From NCBI GenBank assembly GCA_903844635.1, contig CAIMUF010000079.1:1-42937 (forward strand): a stretch of 42,937 nt of DNA, in the 5' to 3' direction. The stretch comes from an uncultured Sulfuricurvum sp. (GTDB taxonomy: Bacteria > Campylobacterota > Campylobacteria > Campylobacterales > Sulfurimonadaceae). Below are positions 18,830 to 42,386 of this stretch, one piece after another. The translations under genes were made by a program, and so were the position numbers. A model generated the notes under the pieces. That model worked only from the letters and a program-made list of their open reading frames with translations, did no database searches and was not told the origin of the DNA. How positions within the stretch are numbered: the stretch's first letter is position 1; each line of letters starts with the position of its first letter.

Positions 18830-19984
18830 TCAAGATTTCGTTTTTGTACCCTCTATCTTTCTCTTCATCATCAACTCCGGGTTGTTCTTCACATAGGATG
18901 TAAACGTCGTATTTGTCGACGTGTGCCCCAGCTCCATTGCCACAATTGCCAAATCTTTCCCATCGGCGAGCTCTTTGGTTGCATAACCCCTGCGGATGAT
19001 ATGGCGTCCACTTTTATTAACTCCAATTGCTTTTAAAGCATAGGTGGTGAATTTCCACATATCGACATCGGGCATCTTCTTGTTTGTGTAAGTTCCATTG
19101 GCATACGTGCTTGAGAGGACATAGGAAGGGTCCGGCAGAACAGCTCTCATGTAATTAACGAACACTTCAATCTCTTCACGTCTCACCACCACTTCACGGT
19201 ATTTATCCCCTTTTGTCGTATGATAAGCGATCGTATAAAACAGATGTGTAGTACCATGATCGTCTTTGTATTCGGACTCTTTGATATGTTCCATTCTTAG
19301 AGAGATCACTTCATCAGCACGTGCACCGCTTAGACAATAAAGCAATACGATCAAAGCATTGCGATAGGCATAACGCTGCGAACTCTTCGGAAAATGCTCT
19401 TTAAAAACATCCGGCCAGTGTTTCATAAAATCGATCAGCTCTTCGAGTTCGTTTTCGGTGACGAAATCGGTACTTCGTTTTTGGACCTTGATCTTGGTGA
19501 AGTATTTAAAGATAGGAGTGAAGTCATAGTTGCCTTTGTTGTTTTCACTGATAAAAAGGAGGAGTTGTTTGAGAACCGTCAAACGGTGTGAGATACTTTT
19601 CTCGTAACGATAGGCGATTGAGAGCTTCGCATCGTTTTTCCCCCGGTTGGCTTTACGATTGGAAACGACTTGGTTATACTCCTCCATCGAGATCTTTTTA
19701 GCTTCGAGATCTTTAGACGCAAGATGTTCTTGATACCACATCAGGTAGTTATTGACAAACTTTGCCGACAACCCTTCCAAATCCATAATAGAATCGTACT
19801 GATGAGCAAACTCTATAAGGGGTGTAAGTGCTTCACCATACGATTTACGGGTCTTATCACTTACCCCTTGAGCCACTTTCTCGGTGATGTAGCGATCTCG
19901 CCAAGCATCGAGATCACTAACGAGTCCTTTACCGGTACAGAGATCCCATTCGGCTAAATCATCTTGAAATTGTTTTGGTGACAT
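18830..19984 (-). CDS. tyrosine recombinase (phage/plasmid integrase family)
   Basis: A 384-aa recombinase. An N-terminal SAM-like DNA-binding region (about 20-165) is followed by a catalytic domain with all active residues: R222 in SGARADEV, K258 in TTKGDK, H328 and R331 in RHIIRRG, H354 in LGHTSTN, and nucleophile Y364 in FTSYV. The start is the ATG at 19984, with AGGAG 6 bases upstream; the GTG at 19990 would leave no spacing. It may resolve plasmid dimers or mobilise the neighbouring accessory genes. GTTGAA/TTCAAC repeats upstream (19995-20050) may be its own regulatory or crossover sites. Confidence 0.9.
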   Translation of the reverse strand: MSPKQFQDDLAEWDLCTGKGLVSDLDAWRDRYITEKVAQGVSDKTRKSYGEALTPLIEFAHQYDSIMDLEGLSAKFVNNYLMWYQEHLASKDLEAKKISMEEYNQVVSNRKANRGKNDAKLSIAYRYEKSISHRLTVLKQLLLFISENNKGNYDFTPIFKYFTKIKVQKRSTDFVTENELEELIDFMKHWPDVFKEHFPKSSQRYAYRNALIVLLYCLSGARADEVISLRMEHIKESEYKDDHGTTHLFYTIAYHTTKGDKYREVVVRREEIEVFVNYMRAVLPDPSYVLSSTYANGTYTNKKMPDVDMWKFTTYALKAIGVNKSGRHIIRRGYATKELADGKDLAIVAMELGHTSTNTTFTSYVKNNPELMMKRKIEGTKTKS

Positions 19985-19994
19985 ATTCACTCCT

Positions 19995-20050: not shown

Positions 20051-20609
20051 GTTTTAAAAAAAAGCCGCTAAACCTACAAAGGGATTTTATTCCCTATCCA
20101 TTTTAAAGAAACCTGAAATTTGATCAGCACAGAATTCGGAAAAAATAGCACGCTAAGAAAATCATTCCTACTTCATGGATAAGTCATATTTTATTAACTT
20201 ATCTATACATATAGTCAAATAATTTATATATAGTGCACATACAAGACAATATTTAATTAAAAAGAGACTATTAGTCTCTAAAATAATGGCTTATATCCAT
20301 TAAATGACCTCTATGCTTTGAGTAAACAATCAAATATCATCTATAAATCCATCAATCTTCTCAAAAATTATACCACAATTGCCTTTTACTTACAAGATAA
20401 TATTGTATTATCATTATAATATAATCAATACGAAGCCCTATAAGACTCCAATATTACGTCCGATCGTCATTTGTAGCTAATGTATATTATCAGTGTAATA
20501 TCATAAAGTATGTTTTAGGTAGTATCTTTATAGCTTGACTATAGTATGACTAATAGATAGAATACTTCTAATTATTTAGACTATATCAACATTATTAAGG
20601 ATTTATACT
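20051..20609. other. AT-rich intergenic region with a hairpin and a promoter
   Basis: About 560 bases without a gene. A palindrome AGAGACTA-T-TAGTCTCT (20263-20279) is followed on the minus strand by TTTTTAATT, so it could be a terminator in that direction. ATATTA-TCAGTG-TAATAT near 20484 is another small inverted repeat. The promoter of the next gene is listed separately. Confidence 0.45.
20535..20563 (+). promoter_or_regulatory. Sigma-70-type promoter
   Basis: TTGACT (20535-20540) and TAGAAT (20558-20563) are separated by 17 bases. They lie 46 bases upstream of the ATG at 20610, which also has an AAGGA ribosome site. Confidence 0.6.
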
Positions 20610-24123: not shown

Positions 24124-25494
24124 ATCAAAATATTTCTTTTGTTTAGTAATTTAAATATTTTTACTCTATCGTTTCATCACTTAGGCTTTTTAACGGACGC
24201 ACATTGTCTGGTACTGCTTGCAGCTAAAAGCCAAGTCTCTCTCATAAAATAATTTTATTAACTCTTTTTTAATTGTTTGAATAGTTTAAAACTGCTCTTA
24301 ACATTGATCAAACTTTATATAAATTTCATCATTTTCTAAGCATTTATCAATGATAATACAAACATGTTCTTCTTCCAATTTGGAAAAAATTTATATAGCT
24401 TGCCTTCGGGTTATGTCACAACATGTAACTAGCTGTAATAAATGGAATGAGACTCAAAAAAAACCTTTTGACATAAGTCTCACTTCGTAATGTGTACGAA
24501 GCCCTGGTGATACAATTTGAATATGGCATTATGTAGCAACACCTTGATTTTATTTAAATCAAAAGTTGCAGGACCATTGTTCACGAAATCATTTTATTTA
24601 GAATCAAGCATTCTTTTAAATTAATTCGATCCCACTTTTTCTCCAATAAAATTCATAAATACTTTAGCATTTTTTGTCAGCTTTTATGAAAACCCTTATT
24701 TTGCTTTTCTTCTTTCGTCCATTTTTATCCTCTTATTCTTAAACAGTTGACACACTTCTGAAGGAACAGAGACGGCAACGACAAAGTCGTTGAAAAAGAA
24801 GACAAAAAAGCCGCTCCAGACGACGTTTTAAAGCTATATTAACCGCTTCAAAACCACCCCTAAAACCGCTTCACACACAAGAAGCACACAACGTTCTGCA
24901 CGTTGTGAAAACCTACCAGTAATTATTTAGCAAACCTCCTTTAAATGCAGTCCCTCCTTGCTAATTGACTCCACACCTGCCAGCATAAAACAGCCCTTCC
25001 TTCCATTTTTGCGTGATTTTTAAAATCGCAGATGAGCTCTACGCTCCCTGAACACACCTACTGTTTTATCTGCTTGTCATCTCTCGGGATGGTGATGTGA
25101 AGTCAAAATAATCCCGATCGACACGGAGAGGTCAAGCCTCTCCACCTTCTAAATACTCGACGCTATACGTTCGTTCGTTCGTTAGTTTAACAATTCAATA
25201 TTTATTGCCTTTCAAGTTCAAAAATAGACATCTCTCATTTGATATTTCTATATATATTCTATATTTTAAAACAACTACCAAATAAAATTTGCCAATAGAC
25301 TAGCATTAATTTTGGAATACAATAAGTGTGTTCAAAAAGCCGATTTTTGACAAAATTTTTATTTTATCATTTGTGTTCATTCCCCAATCTTTTAAATCCT
25401 AAAATCTATTATTTAATTTACAACTAGTGTATGGCGCCATTATTGTTGTGTTCCTAATTGTGTTGCTTTGCATTATTTTGAAAAGATATTTAGA
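24124..25494. other. 1.4 kb region without a recognisable gene, rich in hairpins
   Basis: No complete gene is visible. Perfect inverted repeats are CTTCGTA-ATGTG-TACGAAG (24483-24501), CAACGAC-AAA-GTCGTTG (24776-24792), CACAACGT-TCTGC-ACGTTGTG (24887-24907), TCGGGAT...ATCCCGA (25084-25117) and GGAGAGG-TCAAG-CCTCTCC (25125-25143). AACCGCTTCA is directly repeated at 24841-24850 and 24864-24873. From about 24.75 to 25.15 kb the base composition is clearly less AT-rich than its flanks. A transfer origin or a structured RNA are both possible. Confidence 0.5.
24985..25143. ncRNA. candidate structured RNA or transfer-origin segment
   Basis: ATAAAACAG (24985-24993) pairs with CTGTTTTAT (25061-25069), enclosing a GATTTT-T-AAAATC hairpin. 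Two further perfect hairpins follow (25084-25117 and 25125-25143). This clustering in a GC-elevated, gene-free stretch is what a folded RNA or an oriT would give. The strand is undecided and no known RNA family was recognised. Confidence 0.3.
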
Positions 25495-25754
25495 ATGTCA
25501 AGATCTGAAAAGCTTTTAGTTAAATTTTTAGAGAATCCTACAAGAAGCGATCTTACGTTTTTGGATCTCAAAATCGTCATGAACAACTTTGATTTCGTTA
25601 TGCATTAACGCTCGGGTAGAAGAGCTGCCTTCACAAAAGAAGGCTAATCGTGATTATGCTTCATGAGCCTCATCCATGGAATGAATTGAAACAATATATC
25701 GTTACGCAACTGTAGGAACGACTTCGAAGGCTTTTAGAGAAGCAAGCACAATAA
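25495..25754 (+). pseudogene. hicA: decayed hicA toxin gene
   Basis: From the ATG at 25495 the frame reads MSRSEKLLVKFLENPTRSDL, then TFLDLKIVMNNFDFV. This is the start of a HicA mRNA interferase, but it stops at 25606-25608. In a shifted frame the C-terminal HicA signature continues as IMLHEPHPWNELKQYIVTQL, with the usual H-x-PHP motif, then an in-frame TAG and RLRRLLEKQAQ to a stop at 25754. At least one frameshift and one nonsense change inactivate it. It is followed by a decayed hicB. Confidence 0.85.
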
Positions 25755-25798
25755 TCCTGCTCGTAAGGTAAAAAATGTGTAAAGATGGAAATATGGGA

Positions 25799-26114
25799 GT
25801 GAAATTTATAATAAAGGTTATATTGGGAGTATTTATTACTCTCATGAAGACAAACTATTTTTGGGAAAGTTCGAACACATTGATGCAGTAGAAGATTATC
25901 TTTTGTTATGTATCGAACAAAATGTTGAACCGCTAAAGCCATTCAAAGGAACTTTTAATGTGCACGTCGGCTCTATCACAAAGCCGCGCATATCAGCTCA
26001 ATCATCGAAGGTGTTTCAATGAATAAAATCGTTGAAGAAGCTCTTTTTGAACATAGTGTTAAATTAATGAATGAAGATCCGGAACACAAGGCTACACTCC
26101 AAGCCGTAGACTAA
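25799..26114 (+). pseudogene. hicB: decayed hicB antitoxin gene
   Basis: The readable frame begins KGYIGSIYYSHEDKLFFGKF with EHIDA after it, typical of HicB. It then jumps to VEDYLLLCIEQNVEPLKPFKG: about 20 residues usual at this point are missing, and it runs on as TFNVHVG to a stop. A frameshift then leads to HKAAHISSIIEGVSMNKIVE, continuing to the stop at 26114, which is the HicB HTH/RHH tail. No good in-frame start remains near 25799. The order hicA-hicB is the family norm. Loss of both genes implies that the system no longer acts in plasmid maintenance. Confidence 0.85.
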
Positions 26115-26140
26115 TCCATTGATTTTCTAAATACAACCAA

Positions 26141-26851
26141 TCAAAACACAGGATCTACCTGCGCTTCTGGTGGGTTATAAAGCTCGCCTACCTTTTTATC
26201 GCCAAATGCAATTTGTACGAATTTTGGTGAAGATGACAAGCGTTGTAATGTAGTGTAGCACTCTTCTTGAAGTAGTTTTTTGAGCTGTGTTAATGAAAAT
26301 GGCACCGCATGGTAAAGTTTTTGATTGCCACCGTTTTCCATAATCAAAATATTGAAGAATTTATCTTTGCCGTGGTAGCCATTCTTTATAGACTTAGCGT
26401 TTAGTTTATTTAAAAAAGTTAACCGATAATATTTTTCAAATATAACACTCACTAAAAATAATCCATTTAAATCCTCTTTAATTAGTAAAGAAAAATCATG
26501 CATAATTTTTTCAATTCCTGACCATTCTGAAATGCAAGCAATCAAAAACCGATAATCAATATTAATTGTATAGGCACCCTTATATTGAACGGCTGGCGGC
26601 AGGTATGTATCTGACATATTTTCATCACACAGTGTCTCAAGCTTATCGACCAGAAACATAAAAAAGCATACAACATCTTCTTTTTTTTCGAATAATAAAG
26701 CAATATCCAAAGGACAATTGTATGTGTGTATTCGTTGTGATGGCAGAGAAAAATCAGCCATAGAGGTTTTCTCTAGCTTGGTGCCAAAATGAATTCTAGC
26801 TTTTTCTGAAAAAGCGCATATTATTGTTGATAAAATTGATGAAAATTTCAT
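26141..26851 (-). CDS. hypothetical protein (236 aa)
   Basis: I do not recognise this family. It is a soluble protein without a signal peptide, of mixed alpha/beta character, with hydrophobic strands such as CPLDIALLF and GLFLVSVIFEKYYRL. It ends with a short Pro-rich tail (NPPEAQVDPVF). A Tyr-x-Ile-x-x-Asp-Tyr (YTINIDYRF) lies near residue 95. It begins 43 bases downstream of the tyrosine-recombinase gene on the same strand and may be in its operon. Its stop lies close to that of the convergent hicB remnant. Confidence 0.6.
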   Translation of the reverse strand: MKFSSILSTIICAFSEKARIHFGTKLEKTSMADFSLPSQRIHTYNCPLDIALLFEKKEDVVCFFMFLVDKLETLCDENMSDTYLPPAVQYKGAYTINIDYRFLIACISEWSGIEKIMHDFSLLIKEDLNGLFLVSVIFEKYYRLTFLNKLNAKSIKNGYHGKDKFFNILIMENGGNQKLYHAVPFSLTQLKKLLQEECYTTLQRLSSSPKFVQIAFGDKKVGELYNPPEAQVDPVF

Positions 26852-26893
26852 GGTGTTTCCTTGTATTTTTTGTATAAAATCGGGGCTAGCGAA

Positions 26894-27760
26894 TTAACGC
26901 CGTGCCTGGTAGCCTCCGGTAGTCGAAGCTCTGTGATGATTGGAGGCTTTGCTTGCCTTGAGCATCGATTGTTCGTGGGGCTCACCTGCATCTCGTAATG
27001 AATCGTACAAATCACAAATGTGTGATAATCGTAAATCGTGTGGTCTATGTTTACCATTCAGTGCTTTACGCTGATCGCGATAGTAGGTTGATCTAGTAAT
27101 TGGAACTGATGAAAGAATCATTTTTGCAGTATTGGAATCCAATGTTTTGTCTGGATAAACCTGTCCGCCCTTTCCCTTGACACCCATAAGTATCGTGCCA
27201 GATAAATATTTTTCTGGATCATTTACAATTTTCAATGCCTCACTAGCACGAAAACAGAGCTTATATTGAATAAATGCAACTACTTTGGAACGATGGGGAA
27301 GCTTTTTATACATTGCTTCTGCATCATCTTCACTCATATACCGACCAGTCATAAAATCGCTTGAATCTGGGCGACCCAATAAATCTTTTTGACGCTGAAA
27401 AAACTCAAAATCAGTTTTTTCAGGAATCGTGATATTTTTATTACTGAGCCCAACAGCAAGGGCTGAAAAATTGGAAATGTAATTTTCAATTGTCGAAAAC
27501 GACATCCCAAACACGCGATCTTTAAAAAATTTTGTCAAGATTTCTGGAGTCATCAATAAATTAATTTTTCCGACAATGCCGCTTCTAGCCAAAAACCAAG
27601 TAAAATTTTCTAGCGCCTGCTTGCGTTTTTCCAGTACGGCATGGCTGTGGGCTAGACCATCAAAACGAGCCTCTCCGGTTCGCTTGGTACCCCTGGCATC
27701 AACTCGAATTAGGGCATCCTTGGTCTGTCTTTTGTGGTCTGCACCCTTCAAATTAGCCAT
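26894..27760 (-). CDS. small tyrosine recombinase (288 aa)
   Basis: The catalytic set is complete: R171 in CFRASEALKI, K195/K197 in GVKGKGGQ, H241 and R244 in HRPHDLRLSH, H276 in SNHHRAST and Y284 in TTGGYQARR. The C-terminal Tyr lies only 4 residues from the end. The N-terminal half is a basic DNA-binding region. The start is the ATG at 27760, with GGAG 7 bases before it; it overlaps the upstream gene by 8 bases. It differs from the larger recombinase at 18.8-20.0 kb. It probably acts with the small HTH-like gene upstream. Confidence 0.8.
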   Translation of the reverse strand: MANLKGADHKRQTKDALIRVDARGTKRTGEARFDGLAHSHAVLEKRKQALENFTWFLARSGIVGKINLLMTPEILTKFFKDRVFGMSFSTIENYISNFSALAVGLSNKNITIPEKTDFEFFQRQKDLLGRPDSSDFMTGRYMSEDDAEAMYKKLPHRSKVVAFIQYKLCFRASEALKIVNDPEKYLSGTILMGVKGKGGQVYPDKTLDSNTAKMILSSVPITRSTYYRDQRKALNGKHRPHDLRLSHICDLYDSLRDAGEPHEQSMLKASKASNHHRASTTGGYQARR

Positions 27761-28079
27761 TTTTGCGCTCCAAAAATCGTCGAATTGTGGATGCCGATGG
27801 GATGTTTTTAGCACAGAAATAATGCTTTTTTAGCGCTGAATGTATGGCACGCTCACCCATTCCGTCGGCAGCATGCACGTCAATGTCTTCTTCGTATCGT
27901 CGTAACGATGCAGCTGTAGCACGCTTAAAGCCTGAAAATCTCGACTTCTTTACATCATTTTTGTTTTGATCATTGATAATAATTTCTAGCCATTGCCGGA
28001 TTTTGTCCGGTGAAGGCTTTGGATGTTTTCGAAGAAAACCGTGCAGTCGTCCTGCAATAATATAGGCGACAATGATCAT
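27753..28079 (-). CDS. small HTH-like protein coupled to the recombinase (108 aa)
   Basis: Not a named family. It is a basic, helical protein with segments PKPSPDKIRQWLEIII, KRATAASLRRYEEDI and a C-terminal MGERAIHSALKKHYFCAKNI, then PSASTIRRFLERK, which looks like a helix-turn-helix recognition region. Its stop lies 8 bases inside the recombinase start, so the two are translationally coupled. It may be a directionality or accessory DNA-binding factor for the recombinase. The hydrophobic N-terminus (MIIVAYIIAG) is too short for a sure membrane anchor. Confidence 0.55.
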   Translation of the reverse strand: MIIVAYIIAGRLHGFLRKHPKPSPDKIRQWLEIIINDQNKNDVKKSRFSGFKRATAASLRRYEEDIDVHAADGMGERAIHSALKKHYFCAKNIPSASTIRRFLERKNG

Positions 28080-28298
28080 ATTTACCCTTTTGCATAATAT
28101 AAAACGCTAGAAATCAAATAACTTATTTAAGTCACCAAATTTCTTTTCGTTTTAGTGTAATATGTAATGTAAGTTGAAAGTCAAAATTTTTTCTATGAGA
28201 AGTTTGAGAAAATTCATTATAAAAGGGTGTTTTCCACGTCTCGCTGCTAATTTCTCCATGTTTAGTACAATTTATCAAAATAAAAAGAAGGGGCATGT
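28080..28298. other. AT-rich spacer before the amber-stopped frame
   Basis: No gene, repeat or clear promoter was picked out here. Together with the doubtful frame at 28299-28538 it separates the recombinase module from the nine-gene operon to the right. Confidence 0.4.
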
Positions 28299-38130: not shown

Positions 38131-38211
38131 CCAACTTCACAAACAAATGGCAAAATTACATATAAATTCGACTTCTACTTAATTCGGAACTAAAATTTAT
38201 CACTATTAAAA

Positions 38212-38640
38212 CGAAGTCATATTGTGAAGAAAAAGCTTTTTTAGATTTTTATTTATTTTTATTTTTATACATTACTAAAGTGCCCTATGCTCATCGTTTT
38301 AGTACCATAAAAGCGAAGTCATATTGTGAAAATAGTAGTTTTTAGATTTATTTTTTTAGATTTGAGATATTTATTTAAAAAAAACGAAGTCATATTGTGA
38401 AAACATTCTTTTTATAATTTTTTATTTTTATTTTTATTGTCTAATAAGATATTTTGGATGGATTATCCACAAAATGACTTCGTTTTTAAAAAATTCATCT
38501 AAATATGGCGATGAAATCTACTGCTTTATTTAATTGACGAAGTCATTTGGTGACATAAACGAAGTCATATTGTGAAGAGGCGAAGTCATATACTACTAAA
38601 GCGAAGTCATTTGGTGACATAAACGAAGTCATATTGTGAA
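38212..38640 (+). repeat. iteron array
   Basis: CGAAGTCATATTGTGAA occurs exactly at 38212-38228, 38314-38330, 38385-38401, 38560-38576 and 38624-38640. Variants with CATTTGGTGA occur at 38538 and 38602, a degenerate one (CATATACTA) at 38581, and an inverted variant (CACAAAATGACTTCG) at 38468-38482. A 40-bp unit holding a variant plus a consensus copy is repeated exactly at 38538-38577 and 38602-38641. Confidence 0.9.
38463..38471 (+). promoter_or_regulatory. DnaA box
   Basis: TTATCCACA is an exact match to the DnaA-box consensus TTATNCACA. It overlaps the inverted iteron variant at 38468-38482 and lies beside the AT-rich T-runs, which fits host DnaA help in origin opening. Confidence 0.7.
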
Positions 38641-38691
38641 GTTTCTATAGGTATTATAGATATATATAGAATATATAGATATCTGTAGGAA

Positions 38692-38733: not shown

Positions 38734-39591
38734 TTATTCAAGACCAGGAAGTTCCTTAGTTTTATTAGGAGCACCCATAAAGGTAATACTATTATCATAG
38801 GAGCCTTTACGATATATGAGCTTCGTTTTTGGTTCATAAGTAATTCCATAATCTAACAAAAGTACAGCACTATCTCGTATTTCTTTCATTGCTGTTTGTT
38901 TTGTTCGAAGCGATTCCATTGGAAAGCCGATTGTTTGAAGTAGATTTTCAATGCTCATAGTGCTCGATTGAGAATGTGTCCAGAAAAAACGAATAATTGC
39001 TCGCAGCAATGCGCTTTTGACTTTAAGTAATTTTGGAAGCTCTTTTGTATAGTTTACTGTGAGTTGATCCTCAAAATACTTTCGGTATTCTGGAGTGATA
39101 ACAATTCCAAAACTTTTATGCTTTGTACTATATGCGAAAGAACTAATGATATTAAAACTGTAAAAATCTTCACCATCAGTTGTACGAAATTCGATTGCCG
39201 TTGTTTGAATTTCATCAAGCTTGTCTTTAAGCCACTTGGTATTACGTGATGTTGTACCGCTGTAAGATTTTAAAATGTCCGAAGTAGAAAAATAAATAGC
39301 TATAGCTCCACCATCTACTTCTTTGATTTCTTTAGCGCCTGCGAATAAACAATCGAGAAGGTCTCTATGCGTTTGTGTCAGTATATTACCTTTGATAACA
39401 GTTTTGCCCCAACTAGTCTCAATATACCGTTTCTTTTGATTTTCAATAAATTGTGTATAGGTTTTAGAAGTGGAACTTATTTTTTCGATAGGGGCAAAAA
39501 CCCCTGTGCGTAGTTCACTTACTGTGGCATTAGAATTTTCAAATTTTTTGACAATATCGAATTCTTTAAACGTGAGTTGATTGTTTGCCAT
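38734..39591 (-). CDS. rep: plasmid replication initiator (Rep, winged-helix type)
   Basis: A 285-aa protein that has the layout of iteron-binding initiators with two winged-helix domains: LTQTHRDLLDCLFAGAKEI with the IAIYFSTSDILKSYSG core (about 70-115), and KVKSALLRAIIRFFWTHSQS with IENLLQTIGFPM (about 190-232). It binds iterons such as those just downstream to open the origin. The gene starts directly after the stop of the helicase gene and is followed by a terminator and the iterons. Rep_3/TrfA-like assignment is by pattern and context; the exact family is not certain. Confidence 0.8.
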   Translation of the reverse strand: MANNQLTFKEFDIVKKFENSNATVSELRTGVFAPIEKISSTSKTYTQFIENQKKRYIETSWGKTVIKGNILTQTHRDLLDCLFAGAKEIKEVDGGAIAIYFSTSDILKSYSGTTSRNTKWLKDKLDEIQTTAIEFRTTDGEDFYSFNIISSFAYSTKHKSFGIVITPEYRKYFEDQLTVNYTKELPKLLKVKSALLRAIIRFFWTHSQSSTMSIENLLQTIGFPMESLRTKQTAMKEIRDSAVLLLDYGITYEPKTKLIYRKGSYDNSITFMGAPNKTKELPGLE

Positions 39592-40803
39592 TTAAAAATC
39601 CTTCATAAAAACGCTAGCGTCTGTTTTAACTTCAGGAAATACCTGACGAACTATTTGTTTGCCACCGAGTGGTTTTGAAGCACCGTAATTATCTTTAGTT
39701 AGAGAGATTTTTCGTAAATGACTTCGAGTTTCATCGGGGGTACCATCTTTATTTGTAACATAACTTATTTCATAAACAAGACGTACGGCATCTGTAAAGG
39801 CACTTGCACCTCTGGCTTGAGTTGTATTTTTTGTACTGTGATGAATAAATACGATGGTTTTATTTTCTCTAGAAGCCCATTCGGTAAAGAGCTGCATGAA
39901 TTTTCGTGCATGGGCATTATTGTTTTCATCGGCACCAAAAAAAGCAATCAAAGGATCAAGTATTATCAAATCATAGGGAGCTAGGATTTTTTTAAGATCA
40001 TTAAAATAAGGATTAATATTTATTCCCCTCCCCTGCTCTTCCAAAACTTGGACGGTTGGGCTATTGGAAATAACGATTTTATTGGTAAATTCTTTGAGTT
40101 CTCTTCTAAGAATCGACGTGGCAATTATTTGTGCTCGGTGAGCAGTTAGTCCCGTTGGATCTTCAGATAGCCAGGCAAACGATTTTGAATGAGGATTTTC
40201 AATTGCGTGATGCATCATCAGCTGTATGACCAACCAGCTTTTGCCACTTCCTCCAGGGGCAGAGATCATAGACACAGTTTTTTTAGGGAAAGGTAGCCAT
40301 GCTTTACAAATAAATTCTGCTTCTTCGCTTTGGATTGTGGTGATGTCATGCATATCAAGTAAAGTTACTCTATGAGTTTTTTGAAAATCTTCAAGTTTTT
40401 CCAATGTGCGGCTAAGAACGCTATTCCCAGTGAAAGATTCATTTTGTAAATCACGACTAAATTCGTTAACAATTCCAATAAGAGTGCGTTTTTCACTTAA
40501 ATCTGTTAATTCTTGAATATAGGCTTGTATGGATGCTGCAGGATTAGCAGTGAGAATTTGTAACAGTTCGGCTTCATAATTTTCACTATTTTTAGTGAGA
40601 TAGGTATTGATAAGCCCTTCTTCTACGGGATGATCTTCATTCTGTAGATAAAGAATTGCACGAAATATTGCCTGATGAGACGCGTGAAAAAAGAGGTTGT
40701 TAGTTGTAAGAGCATGAAAATGCGCTTCAATTAATTGCGGTTCGAAAATCAAACTTGAAAGGAGCGTACGTTCTATATCAATATTGTATAAGTGTTGTGC
40801 CAT
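39592..40803 (-). CDS. replicative helicase, DnaB N-terminal domain fused to a RepA-like ATPase
   Basis: A 403-aa protein. Residues 1-105 match the DnaB N-terminal domain (DIERTLLSSLIFEPQLIEAH, NNLFFHASHQAIFRAILYLQ). Residues 155-400 are a RecA-fold ATPase of the RSF1010 RepA kind, with Walker A APGGSGKSW (182-190), Walker B YDLIILDPL (277-285) and the HHSTKN sensor (321-326). In DnaB the N-terminal domain forms the collar and binds primase; RSF1010 RepA lacks it. The fusion could load host primase on a plasmid helicase. It is immediately upstream of rep in the same operon. Confidence 0.85.
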   Translation of the reverse strand: MAQHLYNIDIERTLLSSLIFEPQLIEAHFHALTTNNLFFHASHQAIFRAILYLQNEDHPVEEGLINTYLTKNSENYEAELLQILTANPAASIQAYIQELTDLSEKRTLIGIVNEFSRDLQNESFTGNSVLSRTLEKLEDFQKTHRVTLLDMHDITTIQSEEAEFICKAWLPFPKKTVSMISAPGGSGKSWLVIQLMMHHAIENPHSKSFAWLSEDPTGLTAHRAQIIATSILRRELKEFTNKIVISNSPTVQVLEEQGRGININPYFNDLKKILAPYDLIILDPLIAFFGADENNNAHARKFMQLFTEWASRENKTIVFIHHSTKNTTQARGASAFTDAVRLVYEISYVTNKDGTPDETRSHLRKISLTKDNYGASKPLGGKQIVRQVFPEVKTDASVFMKDF

Positions 40804-40927: not shown

Positions 40928-41587
40928 ATGATCATTACAATATCGCATCAAAAGGGCGGTGTAGGCAAATCTACACTAGCATATAACGTCGCTGTAGAAC
41001 TTAGTAAAAAGTATAACGTCGAAGTTATAGACTTAGATGTTCAGCAAACGGTTACTGCGTATAATCGGGTACGGTATGAAATGGGGCAAAAGCCCTTGCC
41101 GGTTCATATTTTTACGACTCCTGAAGAACTGGAAGTTTATTTTGAAAGCTTAAACGACGAGACTGTTGTTATCATTGATTCCGGTGGATTTGATTCTAGT
41201 TTGAATCGTTTTGCAATGCTAGTAAGTGATTTTTTAATTACACCCGTATCCAGTGAATTTACCGAAATTTTAGGTCTTCAAAAATATGAAAGTATTCTAA
41301 AAGAACTTTCTGAACAGTCAGGTATGAGGATTGTCACTAATGTAGTTCTTAACAAAACAAATCCGAATCAGAAAAAATTTGATGATGTTAATGAATTTAT
41401 AAGTAGCTCATATCATTTTATACTAATGGATTCTATGATGCGTCGACGAGTTGATTTTGCCAATAGTGTTGCATACGGTTTTAGCGTTAGAGAGCTCGAT
41501 AAAAAATCAGAATCTGCTAAAGAGCTTAAGGCATTTGTTAAAGAAATTAAAGAGAAGGCCGGCATTAATGCAAAGAAAAAAGATTGA
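40928..41587 (+). CDS. parA: ParA-family partition ATPase
   Basis: A 219-aa protein with the deviant Walker A motif KGGVGKST (9-16), Walker A' region VIDLDVQQTVTAYN (about 36-49) and Walker B VVIIDSGGFDS (about 79-89). It binds DNA non-specifically in its ATP form and drives plasmid segregation with ParB and parS. It has no N-terminal HTH domain, so autoregulation would depend on ParB or the palindrome upstream. Its end overlaps the parB start by 20 bases. GAAGTAGT before the ATG is a modest ribosome site. Confidence 0.93.
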   Translation: MIITISHQKGGVGKSTLAYNVAVELSKKYNVEVIDLDVQQTVTAYNRVRYEMGQKPLPVHIFTTPEELEVYFESLNDETVVIIDSGGFDSSLNRFAMLVSDFLITPVSSEFTEILGLQKYESILKELSEQSGMRIVTNVVLNKTNPNQKKFDDVNEFISSSYHFILMDSMMRRRVDFANSVAYGFSVRELDKKSESAKELKAFVKEIKEKAGINAKKKD

Positions 41588-42386
41588 TTACTCACTTGCG
41601 AAAAAAATTTCTCAAAATGCAGCTCTAACAGAGCAATTACAAGCTGTGGAAAAGATTCCTGAAATAGTTATTGAAGTTCCTCTTTCTAAATTGATCTCAA
41701 ATCCTTATCAGCCACGGATTCAAATGGAGCCCGAGGCGCTTAGAGAGCTTTCTAACTCAATTGCAGAAAATGGATTGCTTCAGCCAATCGTTGTATCAAA
41801 AGATGGTGAAGTTTTAACTATTATTGCAGGACATCGACGAGCAGAAGCACACAAATTACTCGGAAAAGAGCTGATTAAAGCAATAATAATGGATAAAGTT
41901 GTGCATGCACAACTCGCACTACTTCCTTTAGTTGAAAATCTTCAGCGTAGTGATATGGACCCGATTGAAAATGCTATTGCGTTTAAAAAAATTTTAGATG
42001 ATCATATCGTTGAAAGTCAAAATGAGTTGGCGGAAAAAGTCGGTGTTTCTAAAAGTTGGTTATCTAAAACCCTTTCTATATTACGATTGCCTTCTACTCT
42101 TTTAGTGAAGATTCAGGCTGATAAGTACTCTGATATTACTGTGCTTTCAGCGCTCAATAAAATTCCAGAAAACCAAATTGAAAAAATTTACAACGTAGTC
42201 AAATTGATGCAAAGAAATGAAGCACTTGAAATGATAAAAAAAGCCGTACTAAAACCAACAAAAGAAAAATCAAAAATTGAAATTTCAAAAAATAAAGTTG
42301 TTATCAATACAAGTGGTCTGTCAAAAGTAAATCAAGATAAATTAAGTACCCTTTTAAAAGACATAGAAAGATTATTTGAAAAATAA
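41568..42386 (+). CDS. parB: ParB-family centromere-binding protein
   Basis: A 272-aa protein. The N-terminal ParB/Srx domain has NPYQPR (about 45), ENGLLQPIVV, GHRRAEAHK (the GxRR CTP-binding box) and ENLQRSDMDPIENA. The central HTH is SQNELAEKVGVSKSWLSKTL. The C-terminal 60 residues are Lys-rich and probably dimerise. ParB spreads from parS as a CTP clamp. The start is the ATG at 41568, with AGAAGG upstream. Two copies of an 18-bp palindrome lie in and after this gene. The GERR motif reads GHRR here. Confidence 0.93.
   Translation: MQRKKIDYSLAKKISQNAALTEQLQAVEKIPEIVIEVPLSKLISNPYQPRIQMEPEALRELSNSIAENGLLQPIVVSKDGEVLTIIAGHRRAEAHKLLGKELIKAIIMDKVVHAQLALLPLVENLQRSDMDPIENAIAFKKILDDHIVESQNELAEKVGVSKSWLSKTLSILRLPSTLLVKIQADKYSDITVLSALNKIPENQIEKIYNVVKLMQRNEALEMIKKAVLKPTKEKSKIEISKNKVVINTSGLSKVNQDKLSTLLKDIERLFEK
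41897..41914. repeat. parS: candidate parS site 1, inside parB
   Basis: AGTTGTGCATGCACAACT is a perfect 18-bp palindrome in the parB coding sequence (codons for VVHAQ). It is identical to the palindrome after the gene at 42404-42421. No other copy was noticed in the window. Confidence 0.65.

What the first reader, a model, noticed from the sequence alone, without database searches (positions are those of the whole stretch)
24483..25143. Gene-free hairpin cluster with shifted base composition
At least five perfect inverted repeats and a 10-bp direct repeat cluster in a region clearly less AT-rich than its surroundings. No relaxase gene is present in the window, so if this is an origin of transfer it must be used in trans. 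A structured non-coding RNA is the other main option.
Basis: partly seen in the sequence, partly recalled or inferred. Interest (0 to 1): 0.5.

Follow-up and report, generated by a model that had tools for sequence, protein, structure and literature searches.

The report
Structured RNA element of plasmid recombinase
The gene-free stretch is a conserved, strongly folded element that belongs to a small plasmid module made of a DNA-binding protein and an unusual tyrosine recombinase, and it may be the start site and helper RNA by which plasmids thought to be immobile are moved between cells.

Summary
Four other genomes of the genus carry its core (65-73% identical to the window) with compensatory base changes (12 pairs, 16 cells; shuffles 5.2, 5.5; 0 of 500 reached either). 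In all four it lies 50-75 bases upstream, on the same strand, of a gene for a small helix-turn-helix protein; in three a tyrosine recombinase follows, in the fourth a fragment of it. In the window both genes are present but inverted (26894-28079). The module with a long gene-free leader recurs in the order, twice on probably circular contigs of 3.4-3.7 kb, elsewhere in elements with a separate integrase. Leaders of another subfamily show a covarying pseudoknot. Distant relatives lie on gammaproteobacterial plasmids; of 158 records found with one of them, 144 are typed non-mobilizable. The layout resembles SGI1 mobilisation (oriT, sgm-sRNA, MpsA/MpsB), TcpM/TcpK and MobK. Best reading: origin of transfer plus structured RNA for a tyrosine-recombinase-type relaxase (0.45). 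Main rival: recombination or resolution site with a structured leader. No transcript, nicking or transfer was measured; the known relaxases were not compared directly.

The parts
24436..25143 (+). whole conserved structured element; + is the strand that reads into the small gene in the four relatives
   Evidence: alignments A1, A2, A8; covariation
24449..24481 (+). hairpin GAGACT..AGTCTC
   Evidence: local folds: present in window, L045 and L048, a different local fold in L047
24483..24501 (+). hairpin; relatives have other stem letters around a loop close to GATGTGC
24536..24569 (+). two-step hairpin GCAAC..TTGATTT/AAATCAA..GTTGC; stem changes in relatives, flank CAG(A/G)ACCA kept in 5 of 5
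24768..24792 (+). AGAGACGGCAACGAC..GTCGTTG; AGAGACGGCAACG invariant in 5 of 5; candidate recognition site
   Evidence: alignment A2; coordinates; role inferred
24841..24850 (+). direct repeat AACCGCTTCA, copy 1; candidate protein-binding site
   Evidence: role inferred
24864..24873 (+). direct repeat AACCGCTTCA, copy 2
24868..24885 (+). hairpin GCTTC..GAAGC
   Evidence: helix 2, 91.4% of cells paired, 1 pair with a change on both sides
24887..24907 (+). hairpin CACAACGT..ACGTTGTG
   Evidence: helix 3, 88.6% paired, 2 pairs with changes on both sides
24927..24964 (+). hairpin TTAGCAA..TTGCTAA
   Evidence: helix 4, 3 pairs with changes on both sides
25011..25029 (+). hairpin GCGTGATTT..AAATCGC; by eye the counterpart of the TTTCG..AGGTCTAA feature of other leaders
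   Evidence: helix 5; not reached by the mechanical scan
25033..25046 (+). hairpin GAGC..GCTC
   Evidence: helix 6, 2 pairs with changes on both sides
25078..25094 (+). hairpin CATCTC..GGGATG
   Evidence: helix 7, 100% of cells paired; overlaps the alternative repeat 25084-25117
25125..25143 (+). terminal hairpin GGAGAGG-TCAAG-CCTCTCC; in relatives 50-75 bases before the small gene
   Evidence: helix 8, 2 pairs with changes on both sides; distances
27753..28079 (-). small helix-turn-helix protein, 108 aa (first gene of the module)
   Evidence: alignment A5; tblastn; HTH read from the sequence
26894..27814 (-). tyrosine recombinase (second gene); R, K, HxxR, H, Y conserved in 8 of 8
   Evidence: alignment A4
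26141..26851 (-). companion protein, 236 aa; relatives (34-36% identical) follow the recombinase in L046 and L047
   Evidence: tblastn

Best explanation
The element is the non-coding half of a two-gene plasmid mobilisation-like module. Proposed mechanism: the small HTH protein binds repeats in the element; the tyrosine recombinase cuts one strand near the invariant block or palindrome through its tyrosine, so the site acts as an origin of transfer; and the element is also transcribed, on the strand that reads into the small gene in relatives, into a structured RNA that the transfer complex needs, as SGI1 needs its sgm-sRNA. In the window the genes are inverted relative to the element, so here it could act only as a DNA site or through a diffusible RNA, not as the genes' own leader. 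Shown: conservation, covariation, gene linkage, plasmid and integrative-element context. Inferred: transcription, binding, nicking, transfer.
For: Structure: window family, 55 pairs in 8 hairpins, 94.1% of cells paired, 12 pairs and 16 cells changed on both sides (shuffles 5.2 and 5.5; 0 of 500). A second subfamily of 7 leaders, with a pseudoknot: 57 pairs, 14 pairs and 27 cells (shuffles 6.7 and 8.0; 0 of 500). Linkage: upstream of the small gene in 4 of 4 relatives of the window family; strong small-protein hits beside a recombinase hit in 14 of 14. 20 of 25 leaders have no ORF of 60 codons or more. Mobile context: two probably circular contigs of about 3.67 and 3.35 kb with the module and one other large gene; replication-type genes beside or near it, RepL in L270 and L276 and Replicase-family matches at the cut-off in L266 and L272; of 10 long loci with ORFs listed, a separate phage-type integrase by Pfam in 4 (L267, L269, L271, L272), weak matches in 2 (L262, L264), none recognised in 4 (L265, L266, L268, L270). 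Site-like repeats: one 7-kb contig carries three copies of the leader's palindrome in repeats of about 180-235 bp. Window copy: 52 of 55 pairs kept. Relatives on plasmids: 144 of 158 records typed non-mobilizable. Published parallels: PMC6414798, PMC9299015, PMC8152469, PMC6137059.
Against: No transcript, nicking or transfer data. MpsA, TcpM and MobK sequences were not compared (pIGRK not held). The three known relaxases are said to lack a core-binding domain; here 170 residues precede the first catalytic arginine (MpsA has 161 before its R162), and whether they form such a domain is open: one of 8 members has a weak Phage_int_SAM_1 match (E 0.068) and 3 of 8 a weak Integrase_1 match. Gene order is small then recombinase; SGI1 has mpsA then mpsB. 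The window family lacks the TCTCT..AGAGA palindrome seen in other leaders. Strand-blind tests for the RNA strand are weak; for the window family the antisense strand folds about as well (-65.4 against -63.4 kcal/mol, covariation terms +3.21 and +0.44), and the two terminator-like sites found lie on the minus strand.
Confidence: 0.45

Rival explanations
1. Site-specific recombination module: the recombinase resolves plasmid multimers (or joins and separates replicons) at a site inside the element. The palindrome is the core site, the direct repeats and the HTH protein are accessories, and the folded RNA is only the leader that controls the recombinase.
For: Catalytic residues intact in 8 of 8; palindromes with a TCTCT..AGAGA core, arms of 9 or more and spacers from a few to about 70 bases, in the leader of 15 of 27 sequences scanned, some lox-like, e.g. 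TATCTCTGTTTA-N6-TAAACAGAGATA; three palindrome copies on a contig with two RepL-like genes; direct repeats in several leaders read by eye.
Against: Covariation spreads over hundreds of bases beyond any core site. The module also sits in chromosomal elements that already have an integrase. The window family has no such palindrome.
Confidence: 0.3
2. Cis-acting regulatory leader only: leader peptide, pseudoknot and terminator-like hairpin control translation or transcription of the two genes.
For: Short ORFs with a ribosome-site-like sequence precede the folded part in 7 of 7 leaders of the pseudoknot set and in several others (the pattern is permissive and no control was run); pseudoknot and small hairpin before the small gene; sense strand folds better than antisense in that set, -56.6 against -41.5 kcal/mol, aligned separately.
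Against: In the window the element is cut off from the genes by an inversion yet keeps 52 of 55 pairs; the age of the inversion is unknown. In SGI1 a comparable RNA acts in trans (PMC9299015).
Confidence: 0.12
3. Replication element (single-strand origin, or origin with regulatory RNA) carried along with the module.
For: Strong hairpins on both strands; two probably circular contigs of 3.4-3.7 kb hold little else than the module, its leader and one gene.
Against: The window plasmid has repeated iteron-like motifs at 38190-38641 beside its Rep3 gene, and the element follows the recombinase module, not one replication gene type.
Confidence: 0.08

Closest known systems
SGI1 mobilisation region: oriT, mpsA, mpsB and sgm-sRNA (PMC6414798, PMC9299015)
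   Same: Tyrosine-recombinase-type protein plus small helical protein (MpsB, 98 aa); G+C-rich oriT with inverted repeats upstream; RNA of 650-700 bases crossing the oriT with its working core next to the first gene and ending near a hairpin just before it; SGI1 also has an integrase and a rep gene (PMC8409611).
   Different: Gene order reversed; no sequence comparison was possible; RNA and transfer untested here.
TcpM/TcpK and oriT of pCW3 (PMC6137059)
   Same: Tyrosine-recombinase-type relaxase with a small HTH protein that binds short repeats in the oriT.
   Different: TcpK is a winged HTH of 102 aa encoded upstream of the oriT; no structured RNA was mentioned in the passages read; conjugative plasmid with its own secretion system.
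MobK and oriT1 of pIGRK (PMC8152469)
   Same: Cryptic plasmid; 456-bp intergenic region before the gene with inverted and direct repeats; catalytic tyrosine needed for nicking and transfer.
   Different: No mpsB-like gene was identified there; MobK is described as lacking the usual DNA-binding domains.
Bridge RNA of IS110 elements (PMC11208160, search listing only)
   Same: Structured RNA next to a recombinase gene.
   Different: A different recombinase class (recalled); no evidence here of an RNA that pairs with target and donor DNA.

Membership tests
Tyrosine recombinases | catalytic R, K, HxxR, H/W and Y | tested here: met
   R171, K197, H241, R244, H275, Y284 invariant in 8 of 8. The window protein itself has no Pfam hit; weak Integrase_1 hits in 3 of 8 and PF00589 in 2 of 8.
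Tyrosine-recombinase-type relaxases (MpsA, TcpM, MobK) | sequence or profile similarity to a proven member | not tested
   pIGRK accession not in the collections; no other member fetched
Tyrosine-recombinase-type relaxases (MpsA, TcpM, MobK) | core-binding domain absent (as stated in PMC8152469) | tested here: inconclusive
   170 residues precede the first catalytic arginine, 161 in MpsA; Phage_int_SAM_1 E 0.068 in 1 of 8 members; structure model unusable, pLDDT 35
Tyrosine-recombinase-type relaxases (MpsA, TcpM, MobK) | nicks a nearby oriT and supports conjugative transfer | not testable with these tools
   bench assay needed
SGI1-type mobilisation module | small helical partner gene next to the recombinase gene | tested here: met
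   14 of 14 strong small-protein hits (E below 1e-15) lie beside a recombinase hit; all-helical single-sequence model, pLDDT 54 only; homology to MpsB not tested
SGI1-type mobilisation module | inverted-repeat-rich, more G+C-rich region upstream of the genes | tested here: met
   44.3% against 27-29% G+C in the window; upstream in 4 of 4 relatives; in the window the genes are inverted away
SGI1-type mobilisation module | essential RNA encoded between the oriT and the first gene | tested here: inconclusive
   covarying structure is there; no transcript or genetic data
Classical oriT with MOB relaxase | HUH or Rep_trans relaxase gene nearby | tested here: not met
   no relaxase family among 29 of 57 window ORFs scanned with Pfam; the other 28, mostly short, were not scanned
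Integron attI/attC cassette system | array of cassettes each bounded by a folded site | tested here: not met
   one copy per genome in 5 of 41 genus genomes; an extra partial copy of the left block in G022 only; three site copies only in G196:C133
Known Rfam families | covariance-model match above threshold | tested here: not met
   0 matches at gathering score in the window; best of five weak matches for 24200-25700 has E 0.47

The most novel reading that the evidence does not exclude
A widespread, undescribed class of RNA-dependent tyrosine recombinase: the folded RNA made from the element is a working part of the protein-DNA complex, as scaffold or guide, and lets the recombinase pick and cut its site. 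The module, with its own oriT and RNA, would make many small plasmids of Campylobacterota and Gammaproteobacteria that typing tools call non-mobilizable in fact mobilizable.
Probability: 0.2. Interest if true: 0.9.

Novelty: new variant of a known kind. Interest (0 to 1): 0.62.

Why it matters
The SGI1 authors call their sRNA-dependent module seemingly unique and leave its mode of action open (PMC9299015). A family with independent covariation evidence for a conserved structured leader would give many natural variants to test whether an RNA is part of a transfer or recombination complex. It would also question the label 'non-mobilizable' on 144 of the 158 plasmid records found, since typing tools look for classical relaxases (recalled).

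Tried and rejected
Exact hairpin pattern in genome contigs: 35 stretches, none used; it spent the only scan. Two short patterns in viral contigs (capped at 120 stretches, more exist, 41 stretches): only matches of 20-33 bases to the element among the loci held. Recombinase profile in viral contigs: no relative. DNA search of the element in phages and plasmids: only short matches of 5% of the query or less. Recombinase tblastn with the window protein and with L233 and L055 in plasmids, and the window protein in phages: none; only L058 reached distant plasmid relatives.

Integron reading: followed because of the repeated site in G196:C133, dropped because copies elsewhere are single. The 22-base sequence at window 20132 as a site of this recombinase: dropped; in L045-L049 and L054-L058 its AATAGCACG core occurs only at contig ends (L046, L047) or as a short partial match (L055). 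Inversion by flanking inverted repeats: no convincing pair at the breakpoints. Covariance-model hits outside the genus: the three weak ones lie inside ORFs with no module nearby; two weak genus hits (E 0.12, 0.24) were not followed. AlphaFold models from single sequences: too poor to search. Strand-blind G-U against A-C test: with all repeats no setting of 9 is significant; with conserved helices (14 settings) G-U is higher in 12 and equal in 2, p below 0.05 in 4, cells not independent. Pseudoknot arms across 12 hand-picked leaders: own pairing 4.0 of 5 against 3.6 with other leaders' arms, 5 of the 12 at 3 or less, permutation p 0.004, but several leaders are close relatives. Leaders dropped before the count of 25: L232 and L259 (duplicates of L056 and L058); L243 and L245 (too little upstream DNA); L248 (stop inside, no small gene found); L249 (no upstream DNA).

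Full report
OBSERVATION. The number of repeats exceeds shuffles but not every tile of the AT-rich window (10 of 64 tiles reach it); the number of G+C-rich stems exceeds all shuffles and all tiles. No ORF of 45 codons or more lies between 24491 and 25467. The conserved element runs from about 24436 to 25143.

WHERE IT LIES. The window is a whole 42.9-kb contig. It looks like a plasmid: Rep3-type initiator 38734-39591 with repeated motifs at 38190-38641, DnaB-like protein 39592-40803, ParA and ParB 40928-42386. It also has a phage-type integrase at 18830-19990. The genus is probably Sulfuricurvum: G016, in the same genus, has contigs of exactly the lengths of two S. kujiense plasmids, and those plasmids share 38-42 bp with the window.

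RELATIVES OF THE ELEMENT. A DNA search of 60 relatives gave four further loci at E below 1e-20, in G008, G022, G031 and G015; the other matches among 34 of 60 genomes were short and weak, apart from a partial copy of the left block in G022:C80. A covariance model of 25005-25147 finds the element once in each of 5 of 41 genus genomes. In 398 genomes of the order it gave, besides the window, only three weak matches, which lie inside ORFs without the module. No Rfam family fits.

STRUCTURE. In the five sequences, 8 hairpins (55 pairs) are 94.1% paired, with 12 pairs and 16 cells changed on both sides, against 5.2 and 5.5 in shuffles (0 of 500) and at most 2 cells in slid controls. The hairpins were partly derived from these same sequences, so the slid controls flatter them. 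The left block 24436-24600 has further hairpins whose stems change between relatives.

THE MODULE. In the four relatives the element ends 50-75 bases before a small gene of about 108 aa on the same strand, with a C-terminal helix-turn-helix (read from the sequence). In three a tyrosine recombinase follows; in L048 only a fragment of it remains. The stop reported inside the L045 match lies before its start codon; the frame from there on is open. In the window both genes are intact, but the block from 25144 to about 28100 is inverted relative to L045, whose flanks are otherwise collinear. The window element keeps 52 of 55 pairs; the relatives keep 48 to 52. So it may act in trans or as a DNA site, unless the inversion is recent. 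The recombinase has R, K, HxxR, H and Y in 8 of 8 aligned members.

SPREAD. A profile of the recombinase matched 27 of 398 genomes of the order at 1e-10, with 24 matches below 1e-50 in 18 genomes, a few of them partial or broken. Strong hits of the small-protein profile (E below 1e-15) lie beside a recombinase hit in 14 of 14; seven weaker hits were not all checked. I examined 25 leaders (six loci dropped, see Tried and rejected). 20 of 25 have no ORF of 60 codons or more. 13 of 25 hold the anchor pair TTTCG..AGGTCTAA at full score, against 1.1 on average (at most 4) in 40 rounds of shuffling; among 16 representatives 8, against 0.85 (at most 3). The window family is not among them mechanically. 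Seven leaders of one subfamily show 57 pairs in 7 helices, including a pseudoknot, with 14 pairs and 27 cells changed on both sides (shuffles 6.7 and 8.0; 0 of 500); the pseudoknot helix itself has one such pair, its companion stem two. Their sense strand has a better consensus fold than the antisense (-56.6 against -41.5 kcal/mol). For the window family the two strands are about equal (-63.4 and -65.4). Strand-blind tests are weak. A long TCTCT..AGAGA palindrome lies in the leader of 15 of 27 sequences scanned, but not in the window family.

MOBILE CONTEXT. Two contigs of one genome repeat their first 90-130 bases at their end, so are probably circles of about 3.67 and 3.35 kb, holding the module and one other large gene. 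One 7-kb contig has three copies of the palindrome inside repeats of about 180-235 bp and RepL-type genes. A chromosome carries two copies (99.95% over 8,665 bp) of an element that has the module at one end and a separate large integrase-like protein (weak Pfam support) at the other, next to what reads by eye as a tRNA gene. Of 10 long loci with ORFs listed, four have another phage-type integrase by Pfam, two weak ones, and in four I recognised none. AbiEii toxin genes with an AbiEi (L045) or DUF6088 (L047, L048) partner lie upstream of the leader.

BEYOND THE PHYLUM. One member (L058) finds 9 plasmid records of Vibrio and Aeromonas. Two were read: a small HTH-like ORF (87 and 82 aa) directly before a tyrosine recombinase, preceded by stretches without a listed gene (the gene table is incomplete). 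These fold strongly (843 nt, z -7.3 sense and -6.9 antisense; 604 nt taken from a 1,204-nt gap, z -5.1 and -6.0; 25 shuffles each), and both contain a palindrome with 15-bp arms and the core CACGCTATGT..ACATAGCGTG. The Vibrio recombinase finds 158 plasmid records at 1e-10 (40 listed): 144 typed non-mobilizable, 8 conjugative, 6 mobilizable. Their leaders were not examined. The link between the two groups rests on 21-28% identity plus layout.

KNOWN SYSTEMS. SGI1 moves with an oriT, the tyrosine-recombinase-like MpsA, small MpsB and an RNA whose core lies between oriT and mpsA (PMC6414798: abstract, discussion; PMC9299015: abstract, section 2.6, part of 2.1, discussion). TcpM/TcpK (PMC6137059: passages) and MobK (PMC8152469: abstract, results part 1 of 2, discussion) are parallels. 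Distant SGI1 relatives keep a three-stem oriT structure despite sequence change (PMC8409611: passages); PMC9035990 was read in passages. Searches of the paper library found no description of this layout in Campylobacterota or Sulfuricurvum (only open-licence papers are held).

JUDGEMENT. Firm: a conserved structured element that belongs to a two-gene recombinase module of plasmids and integrative elements. Most likely function: origin of transfer plus structured RNA for a tyrosine-recombinase-type relaxase (0.45). A recombination or resolution site remains open (0.3), then a cis leader (0.12) and a replication element (0.08). Membership in the SGI1 family is not claimed: the proteins were not compared.

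Noticed in passing
window 20132-20153: Sequence GAATTCGGAAAAAATAGCACGC: exact matches in 12 places in 7 of 41 genus genomes, several at contig ends; perhaps a mobile-element end or plasmid recombination site.
   Followed up: partly
window 25468-26022: Remnants that read like a broken HicAB toxin-antitoxin pair; only the HicB part has a weak Pfam match (E 0.0016), the HicA-like part none.
   Followed up: partly
window 25144-28100: Block with the module genes is inverted relative to L045 while both flanks are collinear; no clear inverted repeats at the ends.
   Followed up: partly
L045 9109-10792, L047 43-1274, L048 10670-12396: AbiEii toxin genes, with an AbiEi_3 partner in L045 and DUF6088 partners in L047 and L048, sit upstream of the leader in all three.
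   Followed up: partly
L054 and L058 leaders: A related hydrophobic peptide of 37-38 aa lies inside both leaders (MRIVIGGPKMG.. in L054, found with a ribosome-site pattern; in L058 read by eye), resembling small membrane peptides.
   Followed up: no
L262 8115-16776 and L263 2382-11045: Two 99.95% identical 8.66-kb integrative elements in one chromosome, in opposite orientation, at tRNA-like sequences read by eye.
   Followed up: partly
window 24149-24241: 93-bp stretch 90% identical to another contig of the same genome (G000:C43), with 38-42 bp of it in two S. kujiense plasmids.
   Followed up: no
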